A DNA stretch of 23,277 nt from positions 1 to 23,277 of IMG/VR virus record IMGVR_UViG_3300042939_000604. The stretch is one strand, 5' to 3'. A program made the position numbers and the translations under genes. Below the pieces are notes generated by a model. The model saw only the letters and a program-made list of their open reading frames with translations, was not told the DNA's origin and did no database searches. How positions within the stretch are numbered: position 1 is the stretch's first letter; the number at the start of each line of letters is the position of its first letter. Below are positions 1,945 through 18,849 of the stretch, piece after piece. Source of the DNA: a virus.

Positions 1945-2045
1945 GTGGGTGAGTCAAAAAGTTTTTTTCCCCTACACTTGTGGCCGGACGGCCACAATGG
2001 ACATTTGGCACCGTGAGAAAAACGGGGGCCGCCGGACCCTCGCGA

Positions 2046-2064
2046 GGGTATTTCGATGGCCGCC
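2046..2064 (+). repeat. Left inverted copy of the TATTTCGAT motif framing the repeat array
   Basis: The sequence GGGTATTTCGATGGCCGCC is the reverse complement, apart from a 5-base insertion, of the stretch at 2420-2445. The pair brackets the tandem repeats at 2100-2422. A near-identical motif stands in front of the gene at 13109. Confidence 0.7.
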
Positions 2065-2099
2065 CGGTGACGGGCTCACGGCCTCACCGGCCTAACGGC

Positions 2100-2422
2100 C
2101 TCACGAGGTCGGGCGGGCTCACGAGGTCGGGCGGGCTCACGAGGTCGGGCGGGCTCACGCCTCACGACCTCACGACCTCACGACCTCACGACCTCACGAC
2201 CTCACGGGCTCACGGGCTCACGGGCTCACGGGCTCACGACCTCACGACCTCACGACCTCACCGGGCTCACCGGGCTCCAGGCTCCAGGCTCCAGGCTCCA
2301 GGCTCCAGGCTCCAGGCTCCAGGCTCCAGGCTCCAGGCTCCAGGCTCCAGGCTCCAGGCTCCAGGCTCCAGGCTCACCGCCTCACCGCCTCACCGCCTCA
2401 CCGCCTCACCGGGCTCACCGGC
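2100..2422. repeat. Mosaic of short tandem repeats in a gene-free region
   Basis: Consecutive blocks are visible. First come three copies of an 18-bp unit CTCACGAGGTCGGGCGGG (2100-2153). Then come twelve 8-bp units, CTCACGAC or CTCACGGG (2161-2256), two 9-bp units CTCACCGGG (2257-2274), fourteen exact 7-bp units CTCCAGG (2275-2372), four 8-bp units CTCACCGC (2373-2404), and two final CTCACCGG-type units. Units change length but mostly keep a CTCAC or CTCC start. No credible gene lies in 1910-2577; the one open frame across the array simply translates the repeats. It is probably a slippage-prone VNTR-like intergenic segment. Confidence 0.9.
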
Positions 2423-2430
2423 GGCCGCGA

Positions 2431-2478
2431 CCATCGAAATACCCCGGGCGGGGGGGAGGGGGGCTATCGAAATACCCC
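2431..2478 (-). repeat. Two direct copies of the YATCGAAATACCCC motif
   Basis: CCATCGAAATACCCC (2431-2445) and CTATCGAAATACCCC (2464-2478) are direct repeats with a 33-bp period. They are inverted relative to the copies at 2046-2064 and 13093-13108. The motif is too long to recur by chance in such GC-rich DNA, so a protein-binding or recombination role is likely. Confidence 0.7.
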
Positions 2479-2577
2479 TTGTGGGGGGGTAGGTGTACGG
2501 GCGTTCAGGGGTCCTCCCAGCGGCCCGCGGCGGGCCGCCCCGGCTTCGAACGGCCCATCATCATCGAGTCCGTGCGC

Positions 2578-2942: not shown

Positions 2943-3833
2943 CTATCCTCCGGCTGGTGGTTGGAGTTTGGGCAACAAGTCGCAGGCCCGCGGCCCACGG
3001 TCAACATAGCGGGGGTCTAAGTACCACCTTTTTGTGGTCGAGGCTTGGGCATGGCCCGCCAACTGTACCGGATCTCCCCCGGCCCGGGCGAAATGGGAAA
3101 TGGCGGATCGCCTCACCTGCTGAAAGCCAACTCGCTTGCCGGCCAGGCCCGCTCGCTCAAGGATCGACTTCAACTTGTCCCACAGGTATGTCTTGCCACG
3201 ATCCCAGGCGAACAGCGATTGCCCTGTCTTGCGGGGCGTCGCCGCCAGCATCGCGTCGATCCGGTCGCAGACCTCTGCGGACAGGTCCGAAACCCGGCCG
3301 CGTCGCCTTCCCTTTCGCACGCCGGCCTCAAACGTGATGTGCGGCCGGCGGTAGCTCTCCCGCGGCGTTGTCATAATCGCTCCGATCCGTTCGCCCGACT
3401 CAAACGCCACAGAAATCACAAGCGGCCACCATTCCCGGGCAGGGAATCCCGCAACCAGCCCGTTTTGGGCACACGCTTCCGCGTAGAGTCGCCGCAGTTC
3501 GTCCTCTGACCACGACATCGGCACGGGCTCGGGCAGGACGCAGGGCTCGCAGGACGGCATTCGCTCGATCAGCCTCCGCTCGCTGGCCAGCCGGGCCATG
3601 CTCATCAGCTGGCTCCGCTCCTTCTCGGCCGTGAAGGCAGACCGTGTTGCCTGCCGGTGCTCGAGGAACCTGGCAAGCGTCAACTCGTCGGCCAGGTCCG
3701 AGAGATCCGCGGGACGGCCGAGGAACTTCCCGAACGTCCGAATCGTGCAGCCGTAAAGCCGGCTGGTGTTTTCCGACCGGCCACGCAGCTTGAGTGGCCG
3801 ATAAACCGTGTCGAAGTATTCTTGAACCGTCAT
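2943..3833 (-). CDS. int: Tyrosine recombinase (phage integrase), 296 aa
   Basis: The protein would catalyse site-specific integration and, with a partner, excision. Residues 1-60 form a SAM-like core-binding domain (VQEYFDTVYRPLKLRGRSEN, then LYGCTIRTFGKFLG). The catalytic domain spans about 105-285: R149 in FESGERIGA, K174 in the strand hairpin GVRKGRRRG, box II at 238-241 (QQVR), H261 in AGHAQAST, and nucleophile Y271 in RWYLDPRY. Box II normally reads HxxR; here the His is Gln238, an unusual but tolerated change. The start has GGAGGAGG about 9 bases upstream. It is divergent from the HTH regulator at 4060 and co-directional with the PDZ gene. No duplicated attachment core is visible in this window, so the att site is not assigned. 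Confidence 0.92.
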   Translation of the reverse strand: MTVQEYFDTVYRPLKLRGRSENTSRLYGCTIRTFGKFLGRPADLSDLADELTLARFLEHRQATRSAFTAEKERSQLMSMARLASERRLIERMPSCEPCVLPEPVPMSWSEDELRRLYAEACAQNGLVAGFPAREWWPLVISVAFESGERIGAIMTTPRESYRRPHITFEAGVRKGRRRGRVSDLSAEVCDRIDAMLAATPRKTGQSLFAWDRGKTYLWDKLKSILERAGLAGKRVGFQQVRRSAISHFARAGGDPVQLAGHAQASTTKRWYLDPRYVDRGPRACDLLPKLQPPAGG

Positions 3834-4059: not shown

Positions 4060-4317
4060 ATGGCTACTGTCAGCGAGAAAGACACGGGCGGCCGGCCGCG
4101 AGAGCGTGAGCTGTGCGAGCTGGGCCAACGCATTGAGGCTCGCCTGGAAAAGTTGCGGATTTCCGTTGACAACCTCGCTGACTGTACGGGCGTCAACCGG
4201 CAGACGATCTACGACATCATGTGTGGGCGAACGAGCGAGCCCCGTCCATCGACCCTGCGGAAGCTGGCCGAGGGGCTTGGGACCACCCGCGAAAAACTGG
4301 CTGGGGATCTGTTTTGA
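4060..4317 (+). CDS. Small Cro/C1-type HTH regulator, 85 aa
   Basis: The ATG at 4060 follows CTGGAGGGCG. The frame extends upstream, but that part is low-complexity and lacks a ribosome site. Residues 20-80 hold a complete XRE-type helix-turn-helix: LGQRIEARLEKLRISVDNLA, DCTGVNRQTIYDIMCGRT, then PRPSTLRKLAEGLGTTREKL. The recognition helix is NRQTIYDIMCG. No dimerisation or LexA-like cleavage domain follows, so it is closer to Cro or a minimal repressor than to CI. It lies between the divergent integrase and the rightward early promoter, the usual place of a lysogeny regulator. The repeated GTTGTCTGGC sites at 4334 and 4367 are its most obvious candidate targets. Its stop codon lies inside the terminator that follows. 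Confidence 0.88.
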   Translation: MATVSEKDTGGRPRERELCELGQRIEARLEKLRISVDNLADCTGVNRQTIYDIMCGRTSEPRPSTLRKLAEGLGTTREKLAGDLF

Positions 4318-4496: not shown

Positions 4497-4688
4497 ATGC
4501 GAAATCGGATCAAGCGACACGCGACCACGAAGCCCGCGGCACCGGAGCCGAGTCGCGACGAGATCGAAACGGCCCTGGCGGAGATTCACGCCAAGTGGTC
4601 GGCACGGCGTCGGCGGAATCGGCACGCGATGGCCGAGTTCCAGGTCCAGTACCGGCTGACGCCAATCGTGACCGGATCGCGTCGCTGA
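4497..4688 (+). CDS. Small basic hypothetical protein, 63 aa
   Basis: It is the first well-initiated gene after the early promoter: CACGGAGG lies 5 bases before the ATG at 4497. The product starts MRNRIKRHATTKPAAPEPSR, continues DEIETALAEIHAKWSARRRR and ends in a short strand-like segment (EFQVQYRLTPIV). It is strongly basic, with one amphipathic helix, so nucleic-acid or transcript binding is possible. I do not recognise a family. A longer open frame (4595-5059) overlaps its 3' half; the amino-acid pattern is more protein-like here than in that overlapping part. Confidence 0.55.
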   Translation: MRNRIKRHATTKPAAPEPSRDEIETALAEIHAKWSARRRRNRHAMAEFQVQYRLTPIVTGSRR

Positions 4689-5059
4689 TTGCGGACGTTC
4701 GGCGGGTTGCCTGGGAACTGTTCAACCGGGCCGTGATAGCCCACGACTGCGGCACTCGCCTCTCGCTGGACGAGGCTGAGGCGATGAGCATCGACCAGAG
4801 GATTCTGGTTGGTGATCTCACGGCCATGTACGACGCGATTGTTGAGGCCCGCGAGGCGCTCGACATCGTGCGGGCCGACGTCGGCACGCTGGTGGCCGGA
4901 GACCCGGAAACGCTCGACCGCCTCGCTGCGGTTCGGGCCGAGAGCGAGGCCCGCGGGGCCACGCGAGCGAAACAGGATGCCGCGGCGAGGGACCGCAGCG
5001 GAACGGAGCGGCAGAGGAGCCGCATCACACGGAGGGCCTCGCCCACGAGTCACGGCTGA
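4595..5059 (+). CDS. Hypothetical helical protein, about 154 aa, start uncertain
   Basis: The protein-like part begins around RIASLIADVRRVAWELFNRA and runs through LSLDEAEAMSIDQRILVGDL, YDAIVEAREALDIVRADVGT and DPETLDRLAAVRAESEARGA, a series of amphipathic helices with probable coiled-coil character, then a basic, disordered tail. No family is recognised. Start choice is hard: ATG 4445 would make the first 50 residues a shadow of the 63-aa gene; GTG 4595 has GGCGGAG about 11 bases upstream and is used here; ATG 4784 is also possible. No ordinary start codon lies at the end of the preceding gene, where overlap coupling would be expected. The gene ends just within the hairpin region preceding csrA. 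Confidence 0.5.
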   Translation: MVGTASAESARDGRVPGPVPADANRDRIASLIADVRRVAWELFNRAVIAHDCGTRLSLDEAEAMSIDQRILVGDLTAMYDAIVEAREALDIVRADVGTLVAGDPETLDRLAAVRAESEARGATRAKQDAAARDRSGTERQRSRITRRASPTSHG

Positions 5060-5077
5060 CCAGTGGGCGGTTTTTTT
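5040..5077 (+). terminator. Terminator-like hairpin directly abutting the csrA start
   Basis: CGCCCAC (5040-5046) pairs perfectly with GTGGGCG (5063-5069). The 16-base loop contains a further TCA/TGA mini-stem. After one G come seven T residues (5071-5077), and the csrA ATG starts at 5079. This has every feature of an intrinsic terminator, yet lies within the operon, so it may act as an attenuator or as a translational control hairpin for csrA. CACGGAGG, a GGA-containing motif of the kind CsrA binds, lies at 5028-5035. Confidence 0.65.
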
Positions 5078-5078
5078 G

Positions 5079-5396
5079 ATGCTTGTTCTGACACGACGGG
5101 AAACGCAGGTAATCACGATCCACTGCCCGGATGGGACGTCGATCGAGGTCAGCGTTGTGGCGATCGACGGGGGAAAGGTTCGGCTGGGCTTTACGGCTCC
5201 GCCCACGGTCAACATAGCCAGGAAGGAGCGCGACGATGGACGAGCTTTGCGGCCTCAAGCGACGCAGGCGGTCGGCGGTGGGGCAACGGGAATCAAAGAC
5301 GGCACTCCGCACGGCCAAGTCGTGCCGGGCCGTCGCAGTGGCCAGACAGGTCTGCATATCTGGCCGCAGAGTCACCAAGGGGATCTATCGGATTGA
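5079..5396 (+). CDS. csrA: Phage-encoded CsrA-family RNA-binding regulator, 105 aa
   Basis: CsrA binds GGA motifs in mRNA leaders as a swapped dimer and changes translation or stability. The first 50 residues are a clear family member: MLVLTRRETQVITI, then DGTSIEVSVVAIDGGKVRLG, FTAPPTVNIARKER. Conserved features are the MLxLTRR start with R6 and R7, the V-V-x-I-x-G-x-KVRLG central strands, the APxxVxIxRxE end, and an Arg equivalent to E. coli R44. Usual length is about 60-75 aa; here the frame continues for some 50 residues of Gly/Arg-rich, non-conserved sequence that overlaps the next gene (from 5236) in another frame. A strong ribosome site is missing: the bases before ATG are a T7 run preceded by the GGGCGG arm of a hairpin. 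TTG at 5076 is an alternative start. Confidence 0.85.
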   Translation: MLVLTRRETQVITIHCPDGTSIEVSVVAIDGGKVRLGFTAPPTVNIARKERDDGRALRPQATQAVGGGATGIKDGTPHGQVVPGRRSGQTGLHIWPQSHQGDLSD

Positions 5397-5469
5397 GCCG
5401 GAAGCATGGGTCGCGTTGTGTGCGGCCGTGGATGAAGCCTGGGAAGCCATGAAAGGAGTCGAGGAATGA
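5236..5469 (+). CDS. Small basic hypothetical protein, 77 aa
   Basis: The ATG at 5236 has AAGGAG about 10 bases upstream, and its stop overlaps the ATG of the ATPase gene by four bases (ATGA), so translation is coupled. The product begins MDELCGLKRRRRSAVGQRES and ends in an acidic amphipathic helix, YRIEPEAWVALCAAVDEAWE, with a basic segment between. No known family. The first 161 bases overlap the C-terminal extension of csrA in another frame; if both are translated, this stretch encodes two proteins. The good ribosome site and the coupling favour this frame as the real one there. Confidence 0.65.
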   Translation: MDELCGLKRRRRSAVGQRESKTALRTAKSCRAVAVARQVCISGRRVTKGIYRIEPEAWVALCAAVDEAWEAMKGVEE

Positions 5470-6410
5470 CGCTGAAAATCGAACGTGGGGTGAAGCGGTC
5501 GGCGGTGCGGGCCGTGATCTACGGCACCGAGGGGATCGGCAAGAGCACGCTCGCGGCGCAGTTTCCGAACCCTGTGATCCTCGATACCGAGGACGGCACG
5601 GGGCAAATCGACTGTGCCCGTGTCGTGTGCCACGACTCGATGGCGATGGAGTCGGCCCTGCTCGATCTGATCGGGGATCCGCAGGGGTTCCAGACCGTCG
5701 TGATCGACTCCGCGGATTGGGCCGAGCGGCAAATCCTCGAGCACATGCTGCGGAAGGACGGCAAGCGATCGGTCGAGGACTACGGCTTCGGCAAGGGTTT
5801 CGTGAAACTCGCCGAGGCGTTCACAAGGGTCATGGGCCTGTGCGATCAGTTGATCGCGAAGGGTGTTCACGTCGTGATGGTGGCTCATGCCACTATCAAG
5901 CGGACGTCGCCCCCCGACGAAACCGATGGCTACGACCGCTACGAACTCAAGCTGACAAAGCAGACGGCCCCGCTGCTCAAGGAATGGTCCGATCTGCTGC
6001 TGTTCTGCAACTACCGCACCAAGCTGGTCGAGGGTGCAGACGGCCGGATGAAGGCCCAAGGCGGAAAAACCCGCGTCATGTACGCGGAAAGGGCCGCGGC
6101 ATGGGATGCAAAAAATAGGTTCGGCCTGCCGGCAGACATGCCAATGGAGATCGGCCAGTTGGCCGGGCTCCTGGAGCCTGTTGGCCCGGCGAAAGCCGGC
6201 CCCGTCGCGAAGCCAAAGTCGTGGCGTGAGCGGATTTCCGAGGCGGCCGATACTTCGGCCCTTCGCGTGATCCGTGGCCAAATCAGTTCGGCTTTCGGCA
6301 CCAACAAGTTGAGTGAAGAGCAAGCCGCCACGCTGTTTGGGCTGGTTGACGAGCGGCAGTCGGCCATGGAAGTCGGCAGCGAGCCCGCAACGGAGGCGGC
6401 AAATGCCTGA
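5466..6410 (+). CDS. Sak4-like RecA-fold phage ATPase, 314 aa
   Basis: It is a P-loop NTPase of the phage nucleotide-binding type (AAA_24 / Sak4 group), single-domain RecA relatives that assist ssDNA annealing or recombination, usually next to an SSB. Walker A is GTEGIGKST (20-28), after strand AVRAVIYG; Walker B is TVVIDSADW (77-85); the sensor strand is HVVMVAHATIK (135-145), whose His is typical of the group. The core ends near residue 215; the rest is a Pro/Ala linker and a helical tail (WRERISEAADTSALRVI and onward), perhaps for partner contact. An SSB-like gene three genes downstream (6860) supports the recombination role. It overlaps the upstream gene by four bases and the downstream gene by eight. 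Confidence 0.82.
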   Translation: MTLKIERGVKRSAVRAVIYGTEGIGKSTLAAQFPNPVILDTEDGTGQIDCARVVCHDSMAMESALLDLIGDPQGFQTVVIDSADWAERQILEHMLRKDGKRSVEDYGFGKGFVKLAEAFTRVMGLCDQLIAKGVHVVMVAHATIKRTSPPDETDGYDRYELKLTKQTAPLLKEWSDLLLFCNYRTKLVEGADGRMKAQGGKTRVMYAERAAAWDAKNRFGLPADMPMEIGQLAGLLEPVGPAKAGPVAKPKSWRERISEAADTSALRVIRGQISSAFGTNKLSEEQAATLFGLVDERQSAMEVGSEPATEAANA

Positions 6411-7932: not shown

Positions 7933-8033
7933 CGCCGGCATGTCGGCGCCCGGGAGCGGCAGGCTTCCTCCGGACCCCGGACCGACCGTAAGCCTCACGA
8001 CACGAGGCACCACACACCACGGAGGGACTGAGA

Positions 8034-8213
8034 ATGTTTGCGTGGATTCGAAGGAGAAGGCAGCGGGCTCACCTGGCAGAAGTTGCCAGGATACTCGAGG
8101 CCGAAAACGATCGGCTCCGGCAGGAAAACGCCCGGATGCTGCATTTGGTGCGTTTGCTGCGGGACGTGAACGCGGACTTGGACAGGCGGCTAACGCCGGA
8201 GGCCCAGCCGTGA
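8034..8213 (+). CDS. Short coiled-coil protein, 59 aa
   Basis: The ATG at 8034 has CACGGAGG 8 bases upstream, one of the best ribosome sites in the region. The 59-residue product begins MFAWIRRRRQRAHLAEVARI and continues LEAENDRLRQENARMLHLVR, LLRDVNADLDRRLT. Heptad Leu spacing with Glu/Arg flanks predicts a leucine-zipper-like coiled coil. A basic cluster precedes the zipper, as in bZIP-like or loader-like proteins. It is coupled to the next gene by a GTGA overlap. The function is unknown. Confidence 0.65.
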   Translation: MFAWIRRRRQRAHLAEVARILEAENDRLRQENARMLHLVRLLRDVNADLDRRLTPEAQP

Positions 8214-8428
8214 GCGCAAGCAAGGCGATCGACTGCGAAGACGTTCCGGTGTTCTCGTGCGTCCGCTCTAGTCGCAACCGTGCGTACATCGTTTTCGTGT
8301 GCCCGAAATGCGGTGCCCGAAACTGTCACGGAGGGGGCGAACGGCTTGGCGACGGCGACGGCCATCGTGTTTCGCATTGTGGATGCTGGCCGAACGGATA
8401 CGACTTGAAGGAAAGGGCCTCTGGGTGA
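8210..8428 (+). CDS. Zinc-ribbon protein, 72 aa
   Basis: It starts at GTG 8210, overlapping the previous TGA (GTGA), and ends with the same kind of overlap into the next gene. Cysteines are arranged as FVCPKCGARNCHGGG, then HRVSHCGCWPNGYDL: a CPxCG knuckle followed about 20 residues later by HCxC, the pattern of a small zinc ribbon. Such proteins in phage replication regions often bind nucleic acid or primase/helicase partners. No further domain is present. Identity within the ribbon superfamily cannot be fixed. Confidence 0.7.
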   Translation: MSASKAIDCEDVPVFSCVRSSRNRAYIVFVCPKCGARNCHGGGERLGDGDGHRVSHCGCWPNGYDLKERASG

Positions 8429-8970
8429 GCGGGCAGTCAGACGCAGCCTGTGTCGGTGCGATCCGTGGATGTCGGCCAGAGCTCAAGTTTGTGGCTGAAT
8501 GGTCATCGTGCGCAGAAACCACATGGGATAGCTTTCTGCGCAGCAACAACCTGGAAGGCAGCTTTTCGGACTGGGATACAAGAAGAAAAATGCACAATCC
8601 AGGTTGGACGCCTCCAAGTTGTTTTCTTTATCTGATGCGATGCTCTACGTTTGATCGCAGCGCTCACATTTATAAGGTTGGCATTACAAACTGCATTAGC
8701 TCGAGGCTCGCCGACCACAGCAGGAACCCGATTGCGATTTGGTCTGTAGCAGGCGCAGTCAGGTGCGCCTCGCGCGACACGGCAACGGAAGCAGAGAAGT
8801 GCTTTCTCGTTGCGGCCGCACTTGCCGGCAGATGGCTTGGCGGCGAGTGGATTGCAGGATGCTCCAAGTCTTTAGACATGCTTTCGTTTTCGGGTCATTC
8901 GATTTGCAGAGACAGGCGACGGAGAGTCAGAGCTATAAGGAGGGCCACGGATGGCACGGGTATCGGTTGA
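8425..8970 (+). CDS. GIY-YIG-type nuclease (MUG113/T5orf172-like), 181 aa
   Basis: The GTG at 8425 overlaps the preceding stop (GTGA) and follows GGAAAGGG. The core is at about residues 66-145: SCFLYLMRCSTFDRSAHIYK, VGITNCISSRLADHSRNP, then a helix with TEAEKCFLVAAALAGRWLGG and EWIAG. Y69 and the YKVGIT block (Y83, G86) replace GIY...YIG, R94 is the conserved Arg, and E124 or E141 could be the metal ligand. Such genes are phage homing or defence-type nucleases. The composition is markedly less GC-rich than that of its neighbours, with AT-ending codons, which suggests recent acquisition. The last 20 bases overlap the replication gene and hold its ribosome site. Confidence 0.72.
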   Translation: MSGQSDAACVGAIRGCRPELKFVAEWSSCAETTWDSFLRSNNLEGSFSDWDTRRKMHNPGWTPPSCFLYLMRCSTFDRSAHIYKVGITNCISSRLADHSRNPIAIWSVAGAVRCASRDTATEAEKCFLVAAALAGRWLGGEWIAGCSKSLDMLSFSGHSICRDRRRRVRAIRRATDGTGIG

Positions 8971-9724
8971 CCACTACATACCGTTCTTCGGCAGGGACTT
9001 CCTGGCCTCGACGGCCGGATGGACCGCAGAGGAACGCGGCCACTACGTCACGGCGCTGATCGTGCAGTGGGAACAGGGCTCGATCCCTGACTCGCTGGAG
9101 CGCCTGGAGATCGTATCTCCGGGCATTGGGCGGGCCTGGGAGATCCTGGAGCCGAAGTTTCCCGTCTGCCAGGACGGGCGACGCAGGAACGCCAGGATGG
9201 AGGAACACCGGGCCAAGGCCGAATCGCTCAAGGAAGCGAGGGCGGAGGCTGGGAGGATTGGGGGGAGGTCTCGGCAAGCAAACGGCAAGCAAACGGCAAG
9301 CAAAACTCAAGCAAACGGGCAAGCAAACGACCTAGCAAAAATCAAGCCTCCATCTCCATCTCCATCTTCTTCCCTTCGGGAAGAATTACACACACACACG
9401 CAAACCGCGATTCACCATTTTGGGGAACCCGGCTGGGCGGCCGACGAGTGGTCCCGGTTTGCCGCCGCCTGGAACCGGACCGAGCGGGCCGAGCCTTGGA
9501 CGCACCTGACTGCCCCGGGCGGCTGGGTGGACCTGGCGGCAAGCCCGGGGTGGCTCGACCGAGCCCACGCGGCCATGGCCATGCTCCCCGGCTGTGAGTT
9601 CTTCGACACGCCCCTGCCCGTGACCCGGTTCTTCGAGTACGTGGACCGGATCCTCGCCCGGGAGTTTCGGGGGGCCAAGGCAGAACGTGGTGGCAAGCGG
9701 AAACCCGTCGGAGGAAACCTGTGA
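8951..9724 (+). CDS. DUF1376 (YdaU-like) phage replication initiator, 257 aa
   Basis: Residues 8-90 match the DUF1376 pattern of phage replication proteins: HYIPFFGRDFLASTAGWTAE, ERGHYVTALIVQWEQGSIPD, SLERLEIVSP, and a helix ending in EHRAKAESLKEARAEAG. A low-complexity linker follows (about 108-130, rich in Ala, Asn, Gln, Lys), encoded by iteron-like DNA, then a Pro/Ser stretch, then a C-terminal domain (EPGWAADEWSRFAAAWNRTE and onward, 157-250) resembling the helical replisome-contact domains of such proteins. AAGGAGGG lies at good spacing. The gene after it looks like a helicase loader, so the pair is the counterpart of lambda O and P, with the origin inside this gene. The family call is firm; the origin is inferred. 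Confidence 0.83.
   Translation: MARVSVDHYIPFFGRDFLASTAGWTAEERGHYVTALIVQWEQGSIPDSLERLEIVSPGIGRAWEILEPKFPVCQDGRRRNARMEEHRAKAESLKEARAEAGRIGGRSRQANGKQTASKTQANGQANDLAKIKPPSPSPSSSLREELHTHTQTAIHHFGEPGWAADEWSRFAAAWNRTERAEPWTHLTAPGGWVDLAASPGWLDRAHAAMAMLPGCEFFDTPLPVTRFFEYVDRILAREFRGAKAERGGKRKPVGGNL
9273..9399 (+). other. Candidate phage replication origin with iterons, inside the initiator gene
   Basis: Five direct copies of an 11-bp iteron, GGCAAGCAAAC or a close variant, start at 9273, 9284, 9295, 9306 and 9318, so successive copies lie one helical turn apart. A sixth, decayed copy follows at about 9331. Next come three CTCCAT units (9349-9366), a perfect 8-bp hairpin TTCTTCCC-TTC-GGGAAGAA (9367-9385), and an ACACAC tract (9388-9399). 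Iterons, a hairpin and a base-skewed tract within the initiator gene are the layout of the lambda origin. Confidence 0.6.
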
Positions 9725-17677: not shown

Positions 17678-18103
17678 GTGCCCGATCTCATCGCCCAAGC
17701 CGAATCGTGGTTTGAGCAGCAGCGGCGGGAACACTTGGCGATCGACGTCGAGTACCAGCCTCGCGGCTCGTTCGTGCCAGTTTCGTGCCGGGCCACCCTG
17801 GTGGTCGGCAAATGGGACACGATCGACAAGGCCGGGAATCTCGTGCGGTACGAAACGAAAGATTTCTTCATCGCAACCGATGACTACGCTTCCGATCCTG
17901 TGCGGGGCGACAGGATCGTGGTGGACGAGGGTGCTGGTGAAGAGGTCTACGAGGTAACGATTCCGGACGGCAAGCCGCAGGCATGGGCCTGGGCTGACCG
18001 ACGGCAGCGGGTCCGCAGGGTGCATACCAACAGGCTCCCGGCCCAACTGGCCGGTGGGATCGTCTATCAGTCCGGCGTCTACGTTCCTGGAGTCTTCGCA
18101 TGA
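17678..18103 (+). CDS. Putative head-tail connector/completion protein, 141 aa
   Basis: GTG 17678 is chosen because GGAGG lies 5 bases before it; GTG 17666 would add four residues and has no ribosome site. The protein starts as a helix ([20 protein letters not shown]) and turns into strands: [79 protein letters not shown]. This helix-then-beta-barrel order, with RGDRIVV, is typical of small head-completion or stopper proteins in this position. The fibre gene follows by ATGA overlap. The function is by position and fold impression. Confidence 0.6.
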
Positions 18104-18849
18104 GCATCGCCGGCCTCGTCAAGCGTATCGTCAAGGGTGCCCCGCTCACGGCGGCCGAGCACGACGCCAACCTCACGGCCATCGAGGGAGCCATCGAGGC
18201 GGTCGAGCTGACCCCAGGTCCGGCGGGCGCGCAGGGGCCAGCCGGACCCGCCGGACCGGCTGGGGCTGCTGGGGCTGCTGGGGCTGCTGGAGCCGCTGGA
18301 GCCAAGGGGGACCAGGGCAACGCAGGGCCGGCCGGCGCTCAAGGCCCTGCCGGCGCGAAGGGCGACCAGGGCAATCCCGGCCCACAAGGACCGCAGGGCA
18401 TCAAGGGCGACCAAGGCGACGTCGGGCCTGCGGGATCGCCCGGCACGACCACTTGGGCGGGCATCACAGACAAGCCATCCACCTTCGCGCCCGCTGCCCA
18501 TGCCTCAAGCCATGCGACCGGGGGCTCCGACACGATTGCGAACGTGCCGGCCACGGCCTCACAGCTGACGGCCGACGCCAACGACCTTGCCTTGCCCACT
18601 GGGGACGTCATCGACATTTCGTCCAACGCGGCCCGGAATGTGACGGGCATCGTTGCCAGGGCGGCCGGCACGGGGATCCTGCTCGTCAACACGGGCAGTC
18701 ACGCCATCACGCTCCGGCACGAATCGGCCTCGAGTTCATCCGCGAACCGGATCACGGTCCCGTGGGCCGGAGACTACGTTCTCTCGGCCAACGGCGGGGC
18801 GGCCGTTCTCGTGTATTTCTCCGGTACTTCCCGCTGGCGTGTCATCTGA
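18100..18849 (+). CDS. Collagen-like phage fibre protein, 249 aa
   Basis: Residues 1-37 are a helical N-terminus ([20 protein letters not shown]) that may attach to the particle. Residues 38-115 are about 26 Gly-x-y triplets ([16 protein letters not shown], four GAA units, then [13 protein letters not shown] and so on), a collagen-like triple helix. The C-terminal 120 residues ([40 protein letters not shown], ending [11 protein letters not shown]) form a trimeric beta head; the [13 protein letters not shown] motif is common in phage fibres. GGGGCTGCT-like units show recent repeat slippage at 18258-18288. It is probably a virion surface fibre. Confidence 0.82.

What the first reader, a model, noticed from the sequence alone, without database searches (positions are those of the whole stretch)
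5028..5396. Phage-encoded CsrA homologue in the early operon
The first 50 residues carry the CsrA signatures (MLVLTRR, KVRLGFTAP, an R44-like Arg). CsrA is normally a chromosomal global regulator of carbon flow and motility. A copy in a phage early operon, directly before the recombination genes, could reprogramme host translation or regulate phage mRNAs. The motif CACGGAGG occurs four times in the early region (4484, 5028, 8018, 8327), two of them as ribosome sites of small genes (4497 and 8034), and contains the GGA core that CsrA binds, so a phage-internal regulon is possible.
Basis: partly seen in the sequence, partly recalled or inferred. Interest (0 to 1): 0.85.

Follow-up and report, generated by a model that had tools for sequence, protein, structure and literature searches.

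The report
Phage CsrA with conserved GGA leader
A phage that probably infects Planctomycetota bacteria carries its own copy of the bacterial translation regulator CsrA, and just before that gene lies a conserved folded RNA that displays the GGA motif CsrA proteins bind, so the phage regulator probably controls its own production.

Summary
The gene is real: the CDS is 5079-5396 (not 5028), passes the Pfam CsrA cut-off (55 bits against 27), and keeps L4, R6, R7 and the R44-equivalent arginine. Phage-encoded CsrA is already documented (PMC7366521, PMC8450108; 75 phage records here), so the gene alone is a new member of a known kind. The proposed CACGGAGG regulon mostly fails: of five copies, three are inside coding sequence, and the 8018 site is kept in relatives whose contigs hold no csrA. 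The 5028 site led to something unreported in the papers I could search. The 111 nt before csrA (4968-5078), mostly inside the upstream gene, form a conserved RNA: CAGGA, a hairpin with an ANGGAN-type loop, a free GGA, a second hairpin with GGA in its loop, another ACNGGA, then a hairpin containing the upstream stop codon. Across 16 divergent leaders the GGAs hardly vary while the stems change compensatorily (0/500 shuffles). Two DNA-only scans of 2.9 million viral contigs gave 30 hits, 27 with csrA directly downstream. A covariance model finds one copy per phage and none elsewhere in the window. Most likely the phage CsrA binds and limits translation of its own mRNA; binding itself is inferred.

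The parts
5079..5396 (+). csrA: CsrA-family protein, 105 aa; conserved domain is residues 1-51 (5079-5231). The rest overlaps the next gene out of frame.
   Evidence: PF02599 55.1 bits, cut-off 27; phrog_9500 'CsrA-like regulator' E 2.8e-9; best PDB fold matches are CsrA/RsmA/RsmE; dN/dS 0.02-0.42 in most comparisons between related phage csrA genes.
4968..5078 (+). Conserved csrA leader RNA with five GGA sites and three hairpin elements; lies mostly in the 3' end of the upstream gene
   Evidence: 94.4 bits to covariance model R1 (this leader is one of its 16 seeds), only copy in the window; covariation 0/500 shuffles, 86% paired against at most 48% when slid; 2 of 2000 synonymous recodings reach its 6 GGA and 2 GGA loops.
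4973..4977 (+). Site 1: single-stranded CAGGA (GGA 4975-4977)
   Evidence: AGGA invariant in 16 leaders.
4980..5001 (+). Hairpin P0, loop 4988-4993 AGGGAC (ANGGAN type; GGA 4990-4992)
   Evidence: 7 of 8 pairs have changes on both sides, 93.8% of cells paired; found unprompted by RNAalifold; loop GGA invariant.
5004..5008 (+). Site 3: CGGAG between the hairpins (GGA 5005-5007)
   Evidence: GGAG invariant in 16 leaders.
5008..5023 (+). Hairpin P1, GCGGC-AGAGGA-GCCGC (GGA 5016-5018 in the loop)
   Evidence: Loop GGA invariant; other leaders use other stems around it, e.g. TGCCG/CGGCA, GGCCGGC/GCCGGCC, GCGGCCGC/GCGGCCGC.
5027..5035 (+).
   Evidence: leaders; GGA 15 nt start to start from the P1 GGA.
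5041..5068 (+). Hairpin P2 (GCCCAC/GTGGGC); inner stem contains the upstream gene's stop codon 5057-5059; its 3' arm abuts or includes the csrA ribosome site in most relatives; in this window followed by seven T
   Evidence: 6 of 9 P2 pairs change on both sides; RNAalifold finds it unprompted.
4673..5059 (+). Upstream gene ('up'), start codon uncertain; its last ~25 codons carry the RNA element
   Evidence: 32-43% identical homologues before csrA in relatives; gene bodies nearly unalignable in L283, L286, L288 while the element persists.
5236..5469 (+). 77-aa gene overlapping the csrA tail
   Evidence: Homologues at 40-48% in L281, L279, L280.
5466..6410 (+). Sak4-like recombination ATPase
   Evidence: PF13479 5.6e-46; phrog_124 'Sak4-like ssDNA annealing protein' 2e-47.
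4060..4317 (+). Cro/CI-type HTH regulator
   Evidence: PF13560, PF01381 over cut-off.
2943..3833 (-). Tyrosine integrase, so a temperate phage
   Evidence: phrog_1 integrase 1.5e-15.

Best explanation
The window is from a temperate phage, probably of Planctomycetota, that makes a CsrA-family dimeric RNA-binding protein. Its csrA message begins with a conserved structured RNA that presents five GGA sites, two in hairpin loops. I propose that the phage CsrA binds these sites as bridged pairs and reduces translation of csrA, and perhaps of the overlapping downstream genes, until other RNAs (host or phage targets) draw the protein away. P2, which contains the upstream stop codon and in most relatives covers the csrA ribosome site, would couple csrA translation to the upstream gene. 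Shown: the CsrA domain, the conserved synteny, the conserved RNA structure with invariant GGA, and its tie to csrA. Inferred: binding, negative sign, coupling, host.
For: CsrA domain and key residues. Fixed order HTH / up / csrA / small gene / Sak4 in relatives with csrA only 34-42% identical. csrA under purifying selection. Leader: GGAs are the core of the invariant columns in 16 leaders while stems covary. Blind DNA scan 1 (P1 motif): 12 of 15 contigs have csrA directly downstream; scan 2 (P0-P1 spacer, free P1 stem): 15 of 15. Model R1: one copy per phage at 72-103 bits, next best 23 bits. The peptide read through the element differs between relatives (ERQRSR, KEAGGAGQ, ECRRTG), so selection acts on RNA. 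The features match published CsrA rules: ANGGAN hexaloop, ACA plus GGA, sites bridged at 10-63 nt; E. coli CsrA represses its own leader through four sites (PMC7652899).
Against: No binding data. 5 of 16 P0 loops are UCGGAN, and the window's P1 loop is GAGGA, not ANGGA. The window's own csrA has a poor ribosome site, and P2 there is followed by T7, so attenuation of transcription is possible. L281, L279 and L290 have lost R6 yet keep the leader. csrA-less relatives also have GGA-rich hairpins before Sak4, so such arrays may not depend on a phage CsrA. Covariation alone does not exclude a DNA hairpin.
Confidence: 0.68

Rival explanations
1. The leader is a cis-encoded decoy or sensor for the host's CsrA: host CsrA binds the array, so early-operon expression follows host Csr activity, or the array titrates host CsrA as CsrB-type RNAs do. 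The phage csrA is a later addition to the slot.
For: csrA-less relatives have GGA-loop hairpins right before Sak4; that leader is the top-ranked GGA-loop stretch in L063, L071, L075 and L055 and has some compensatory pairs. 38 of 99 Planctomycetota genomes encode CsrA, some many copies.
Against: R1 matches to those leaders (13-23 bits) are at the level of chance hits in unrelated genomes (25-27 bits in 4 of 392 and 2 of 200), so homology is not shown. The strong element is tied to csrA in every full-length match.
Confidence: 0.2
2. The leader is only a translational-coupling device: P2 hides the csrA ribosome site and ribosomes ending at the upstream stop open it. The GGA motifs are Shine-Dalgarno-like by-products of a GC-rich genome.
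For: P2 covaries and contains the stop codon; GGA is part of Shine-Dalgarno sequences.
Against: P0 and P1 are not needed for coupling, yet are the most conserved parts, with GGA invariant and stems changing. Only 2 of 2000 synonymous recodings match the GGA content and loop display.
Confidence: 0.1
3. The phage CsrA acts mainly on host messages (for example defence or metabolism) and the leader only tunes dose. This can be true together with the best explanation.
For: RsmA represses CRISPR-Cas in Serratia and was suggested as a phage counter-defence (PMC8450108); plasmid RsmQ takes over host regulation (PMC9928087 abstract).
Against: Nothing in this window bears on host targets; no host genome is known.
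Confidence: 0.4
4. A decaying, non-functional csrA capture with a fused tail.
For: Tail overlaps the next gene; below the NCBIfam equivalog cut-offs.
Against: Purifying selection in relatives (dN/dS 0.02-0.42), invariant Arg48 in nine clade members, conserved synteny and leader.
Confidence: 0.04

Closest known systems
Phage-encoded CsrA/RsmA homologues (Pseudomonas RsmM phages, Burkholderia DC1, Vibrio J26)
   Same: A CsrA-family gene on a phage genome; PF02599 domain, 46-48% identity over 50 residues to Pseudomonas phage copies.
   Different: Probable planctomycete phage; longer beta1-beta2 loop (HCPDGTS); fixed position before Sak4; csrA preceded by the conserved GGA leader.
E. coli csrA autoregulatory leader
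   Same: Several GGA sites before csrA; translational feedback (PMC7652899).
   Different: Lies mostly inside an upstream coding region; ends in a hairpin holding that gene's stop codon; autoregulation untested here; sequence relation not tested directly.
CsrB/CsrC, RsmX/Y/Z sponge RNAs
   Same: Alternating hairpin-loop and linker GGA motifs.
   Different: Part of an mRNA, five conserved sites only, no Rfam match.
csrA-Sak4 region of Planctomycetes bacterium Pan216 (CP036279.1, about 2.717-2.719 Mb)
   Same: csrA then a Sak4-like gene then a primosomal-like gene on one strand.
   Different: csrA 40% and Sak4 29% identical; leader is a GGCTAC-type repeat without the RNA element.

Membership tests
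CsrA family (PF02599) | Profile score above the curated cut-off | tested here: met
   55.1 bits against 27.
NCBIfam equivalog 'carbon storage regulator CsrA' | Equivalog cut-off | tested here: not met
   42 bits against 73 (NF002469) and 39.5 against 70.1 (TIGR00202): family member, not the curated equivalog.
CsrA family (PF02599) | RNA-binding residues L4, R6, R7, R44 | tested here: met
   L4, R6, R7, R48 present in the window protein; I47 is Arg and E45 is Lys. In L281, L279 and L290 R6 is lost.
CsrA family (PF02599) | CsrA fold | tested here: met
   Model pLDDT 89-94 for residues 11-50; first 13 PDB matches are all CsrA/RsmA/RsmE, best E 0.0075.
CsrA family (PF02599) | Domain-swapped dimer that binds GGA RNA | not testable with these tools
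   Needs purified protein.
CsrA-binding leader | At least two GGA, one in a hairpin loop, 10-63 nt apart | tested here: met
   Five sites, two in loops, P1 and site 5 GGA 15 nt start to start; rule from PMC7652899.
CsrA-binding leader | A site overlapping the Shine-Dalgarno sequence | tested here: inconclusive
   P2 3' arm includes or abuts the ribosome site in most relatives; the window's ribosome site is weak.
CsrA-binding leader | Direct binding and feedback | not testable with these tools
   Needs gel shift and reporter assays.
CsrB/Rsm sRNA families in Rfam | Match to an Rfam model | tested here: not met
   No match at gathering thresholds.
   3 of 5 sites in coding sequence; 8018 leader conserved in records without csrA.

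The most novel reading that the evidence does not exclude
A group of planctomycete phages uses structured GGA arrays at the head of the early recombination operon as a sensor or sponge for host CsrA, and one lineage later placed its own csrA directly behind the array, turning it into a self-contained switch that could influence early gene expression or the lysogeny decision.
Probability: 0.18. Interest if true: 0.8.

Novelty: new variant of a known kind. Interest (0 to 1): 0.58.

Why it matters
Phage csrA genes have been catalogued, but in the papers found here none had a known RNA target. This gives a concrete, conserved, testable target RNA in many uncultured phages, and a marker that recognises the lineage from DNA alone. 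It would show that a phage Csr system includes its own feedback loop, in phages of a phylum for which I found no paper on phage CsrA.

Tried and rejected
CACGGAGG regulon: rejected. Conservation of the leader as a protein tail: rejected, since different peptides are encoded by the same RNA layout and the upstream gene bodies hardly align. More csrA members by a CsrA alignment: the nine sequences were too diverse for a search, so DNA patterns were used. Chance hits of the P1 18-mer alone (L289, L292, L295) have no array and no csrA. The element in host chromosomes: only 25-27 bit hits, equally frequent in Pseudomonadota, so treated as noise. csrA leaders of other phage groups (those of L003-L018 that were searched): no strong match (L006 15.9 bits next to csrA, not followed). 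Rfam: nothing. Sigma-70 promoter scan: nothing. No near relative among named phages.

Full report
Observation. The ORF around 5028-5396 contains a CsrA-family protein that starts at ATG 5079. Pfam CsrA scores 55.1 bits against a cut-off of 27, PHROGs gives 'CsrA-like regulator' at 2.8e-9, and NCBIfam CsrA models match below their equivalog cut-offs. Residues L4, R6, R7 and Arg48 (E. coli R44) are kept. An AlphaFold model is confident only for the core (residues 11-50), and its first 13 matches among solved structures are CsrA/RsmA/RsmE proteins. Residues past about 53 are read over the next gene (5236-5469) in another frame. That gene has a homologue in a relative where csrA stops at its start, so the long tail is probably incidental.

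Setting. The window is a linear viral record of 23,277 bases with integrase, Cro/CI-type HTH, csrA, Sak4, primosomal, RuvC-like, terminase and portal genes (terminase and portal named from their relatives). The portal protein is mostly 41-49% identical to the better matches in 44 of 392 Planctomycetota genomes, about 28% to the best named phages, and no match at 1e-50 appears in 299 Pseudomonadota genomes. A planctomycete host is therefore likely but inferred. No named phage is close at the DNA level.

What is known. Phage csrA is documented: 30 csrA-bearing phages in PMC7366521, many in GenBank and IMG/VR in PMC8450108, which proposes an anti-CRISPR role. Here 75 phage and 148 plasmid records matched. 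The gene alone is therefore ordinary for its kind.

The motif claim. CACGGAGG occurs five times. The copies at 5028, 8327 and 12410 lie in coding sequence. The ACGGA core is under-represented overall. A CACGGAGG regulon is therefore not supported.

The leader. Relatives found through the portal and csrA searches share the order HTH, up gene, csrA, small gene, Sak4 (HTH and small-gene homologues not detected in L282), although csrA itself is only 34-42% identical (csrA also found in the records of L095, L092, L019 and L118). Their csrA leaders looked alike, with GGA in a hairpin loop. A blind scan of viral contigs with that 18-mer (17 fixed bases) returned 15 contigs, 12 with csrA directly downstream. 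A second scan, CAGGAGACCG-N8-26-GGGAAGGAG, which leaves the P1 stem and all of csrA free, returned 15 contigs, all with csrA downstream (two of them shared with the first scan). The union is 25 contigs. The scans are not exhaustive: the record holding L019 carries the second pattern but was not listed.

Sixteen leaders (15 of them less than 95% identical, plus L300) align over 121 columns with invariant AGGA, GGA in the P0 loop, GGAG, and GGA in the P1 loop. With P0, P1 and P2 as a given structure, 86% of cells pair (at most 48% when slid), 14 of 22 pairs have changes on both sides, and covariation is 0.339 against at most 0.065 slid and 0.123 shuffled, 0 of 500 shuffles reaching it. The structure was partly read from these sequences, which favours it over the slid versions; RNAalifold without guidance also finds P0 and P2, with 11 of 14 pairs compensated. 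P1 changes register between relatives, so its support in this alignment is weaker (79% paired), but the alternative stems around the same GGA are plain in the sequences. In the window alone, 2 of 2000 synonymous recodings of the overlapping codons reach both its 6 GGA and its 2 GGA loops.

RNA, not protein. The body of the upstream gene can hardly be aligned between the window and L283, L286 or L288, while its last codons are conserved only where the RNA is, and the peptide there differs when the P1 stem changes.

Specificity. Model R1 scores 72-103 bits at the csrA leaders, once per phage, and the next best of 970 kb is 23 bits. The leaders in the seed match by construction; L285, L287, L291, L294, L296, L299, L305 and L307 were not seeds but are near-identical to seeds or close relatives. 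Chance matches in whole genomes reach 25-27 bits. No second copy exists in the window, so a family of phage targets with this layout is not seen.

Mechanism. Published rules for CsrA targets are ANGGAN hexaloops, conserved ACA and GGA, and bridging of sites 10-63 nt apart; E. [quoted passage not shown] The phage leader fits: the P0 loop is AGGGAC here and ACGGAU/C in many relatives, and site 5 is ACACGGAGG. Negative feedback is the simplest reading. P2 holds the upstream stop codon and in most relatives the csrA ribosome site, suggesting coupling; in the window and L290 a T run follows P2, so transcription attenuation is possible there.

A complication. Related phages without a detected csrA have GGA-loop hairpins just before Sak4; that stretch ranks first among all 110-nt windows in L063, L071, L075 and L055, high in L067, lower in L073, with limited compensatory support in L061, L064, L066, L067, L071, L076 and L077. 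In the window the csrA leader ranks second as a locus, after 9151-9310. This keeps open a role for host CsrA. 38 of 99 Planctomycetota genomes have CsrA. Pan216 shows csrA followed by a Sak4-like gene without this leader.

Verdict. The csrA is a new member of a known kind; its conserved GGA leader makes the locus a new variant. Structure and association are shown computationally; binding, sign and biological purpose are inferred.

Noticed in passing
L063:5843-5958, L071:5861-5990, L075:5801-5960, L055:5821-5950, L067:4711-4840: In csrA-less relatives the leader of the Sak4 gene is the densest or nearly densest GGA-in-hairpin-loop stretch; L063 has several ACGGA-type loops. Could be a target of host CsrA.
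   Followed up: partly
window 7960-8033 and L061, L062, L070, L072, L076: A conserved leader before the small gene at 8034, with a hairpin whose stem differs compensatorily (GCCTC/GAGGC against CCCC/GGGG) ahead of CACGGAGG.
   Followed up: no
window 9151-9310: The highest GGA-loop density in the window, inside the primosomal-like gene; conservation not checked.
   Followed up: no
window 8428-8970: The frame contains LYLMR...IYKVGITNCISSRL, which resembles a GIY-YIG or T5orf172-type domain by eye only.
   Followed up: no
window 2030-2480: Translated frame is a chain of short repeats (LTRSGG, SRLQAPG), so the DNA looks like tandem repeats near the integrase.
   Followed up: no
window 18100-18849: Collagen-like GPAG repeats in a structural-region gene.
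   Followed up: no
L314 (Pan216, CP036279.1 about 2.713-2.726 Mb): csrA and a Sak4-like gene on one strand in a planctomycete chromosome; its csrA leader is a long GGCTAC/GGCGAC repeat.
   Followed up: partly
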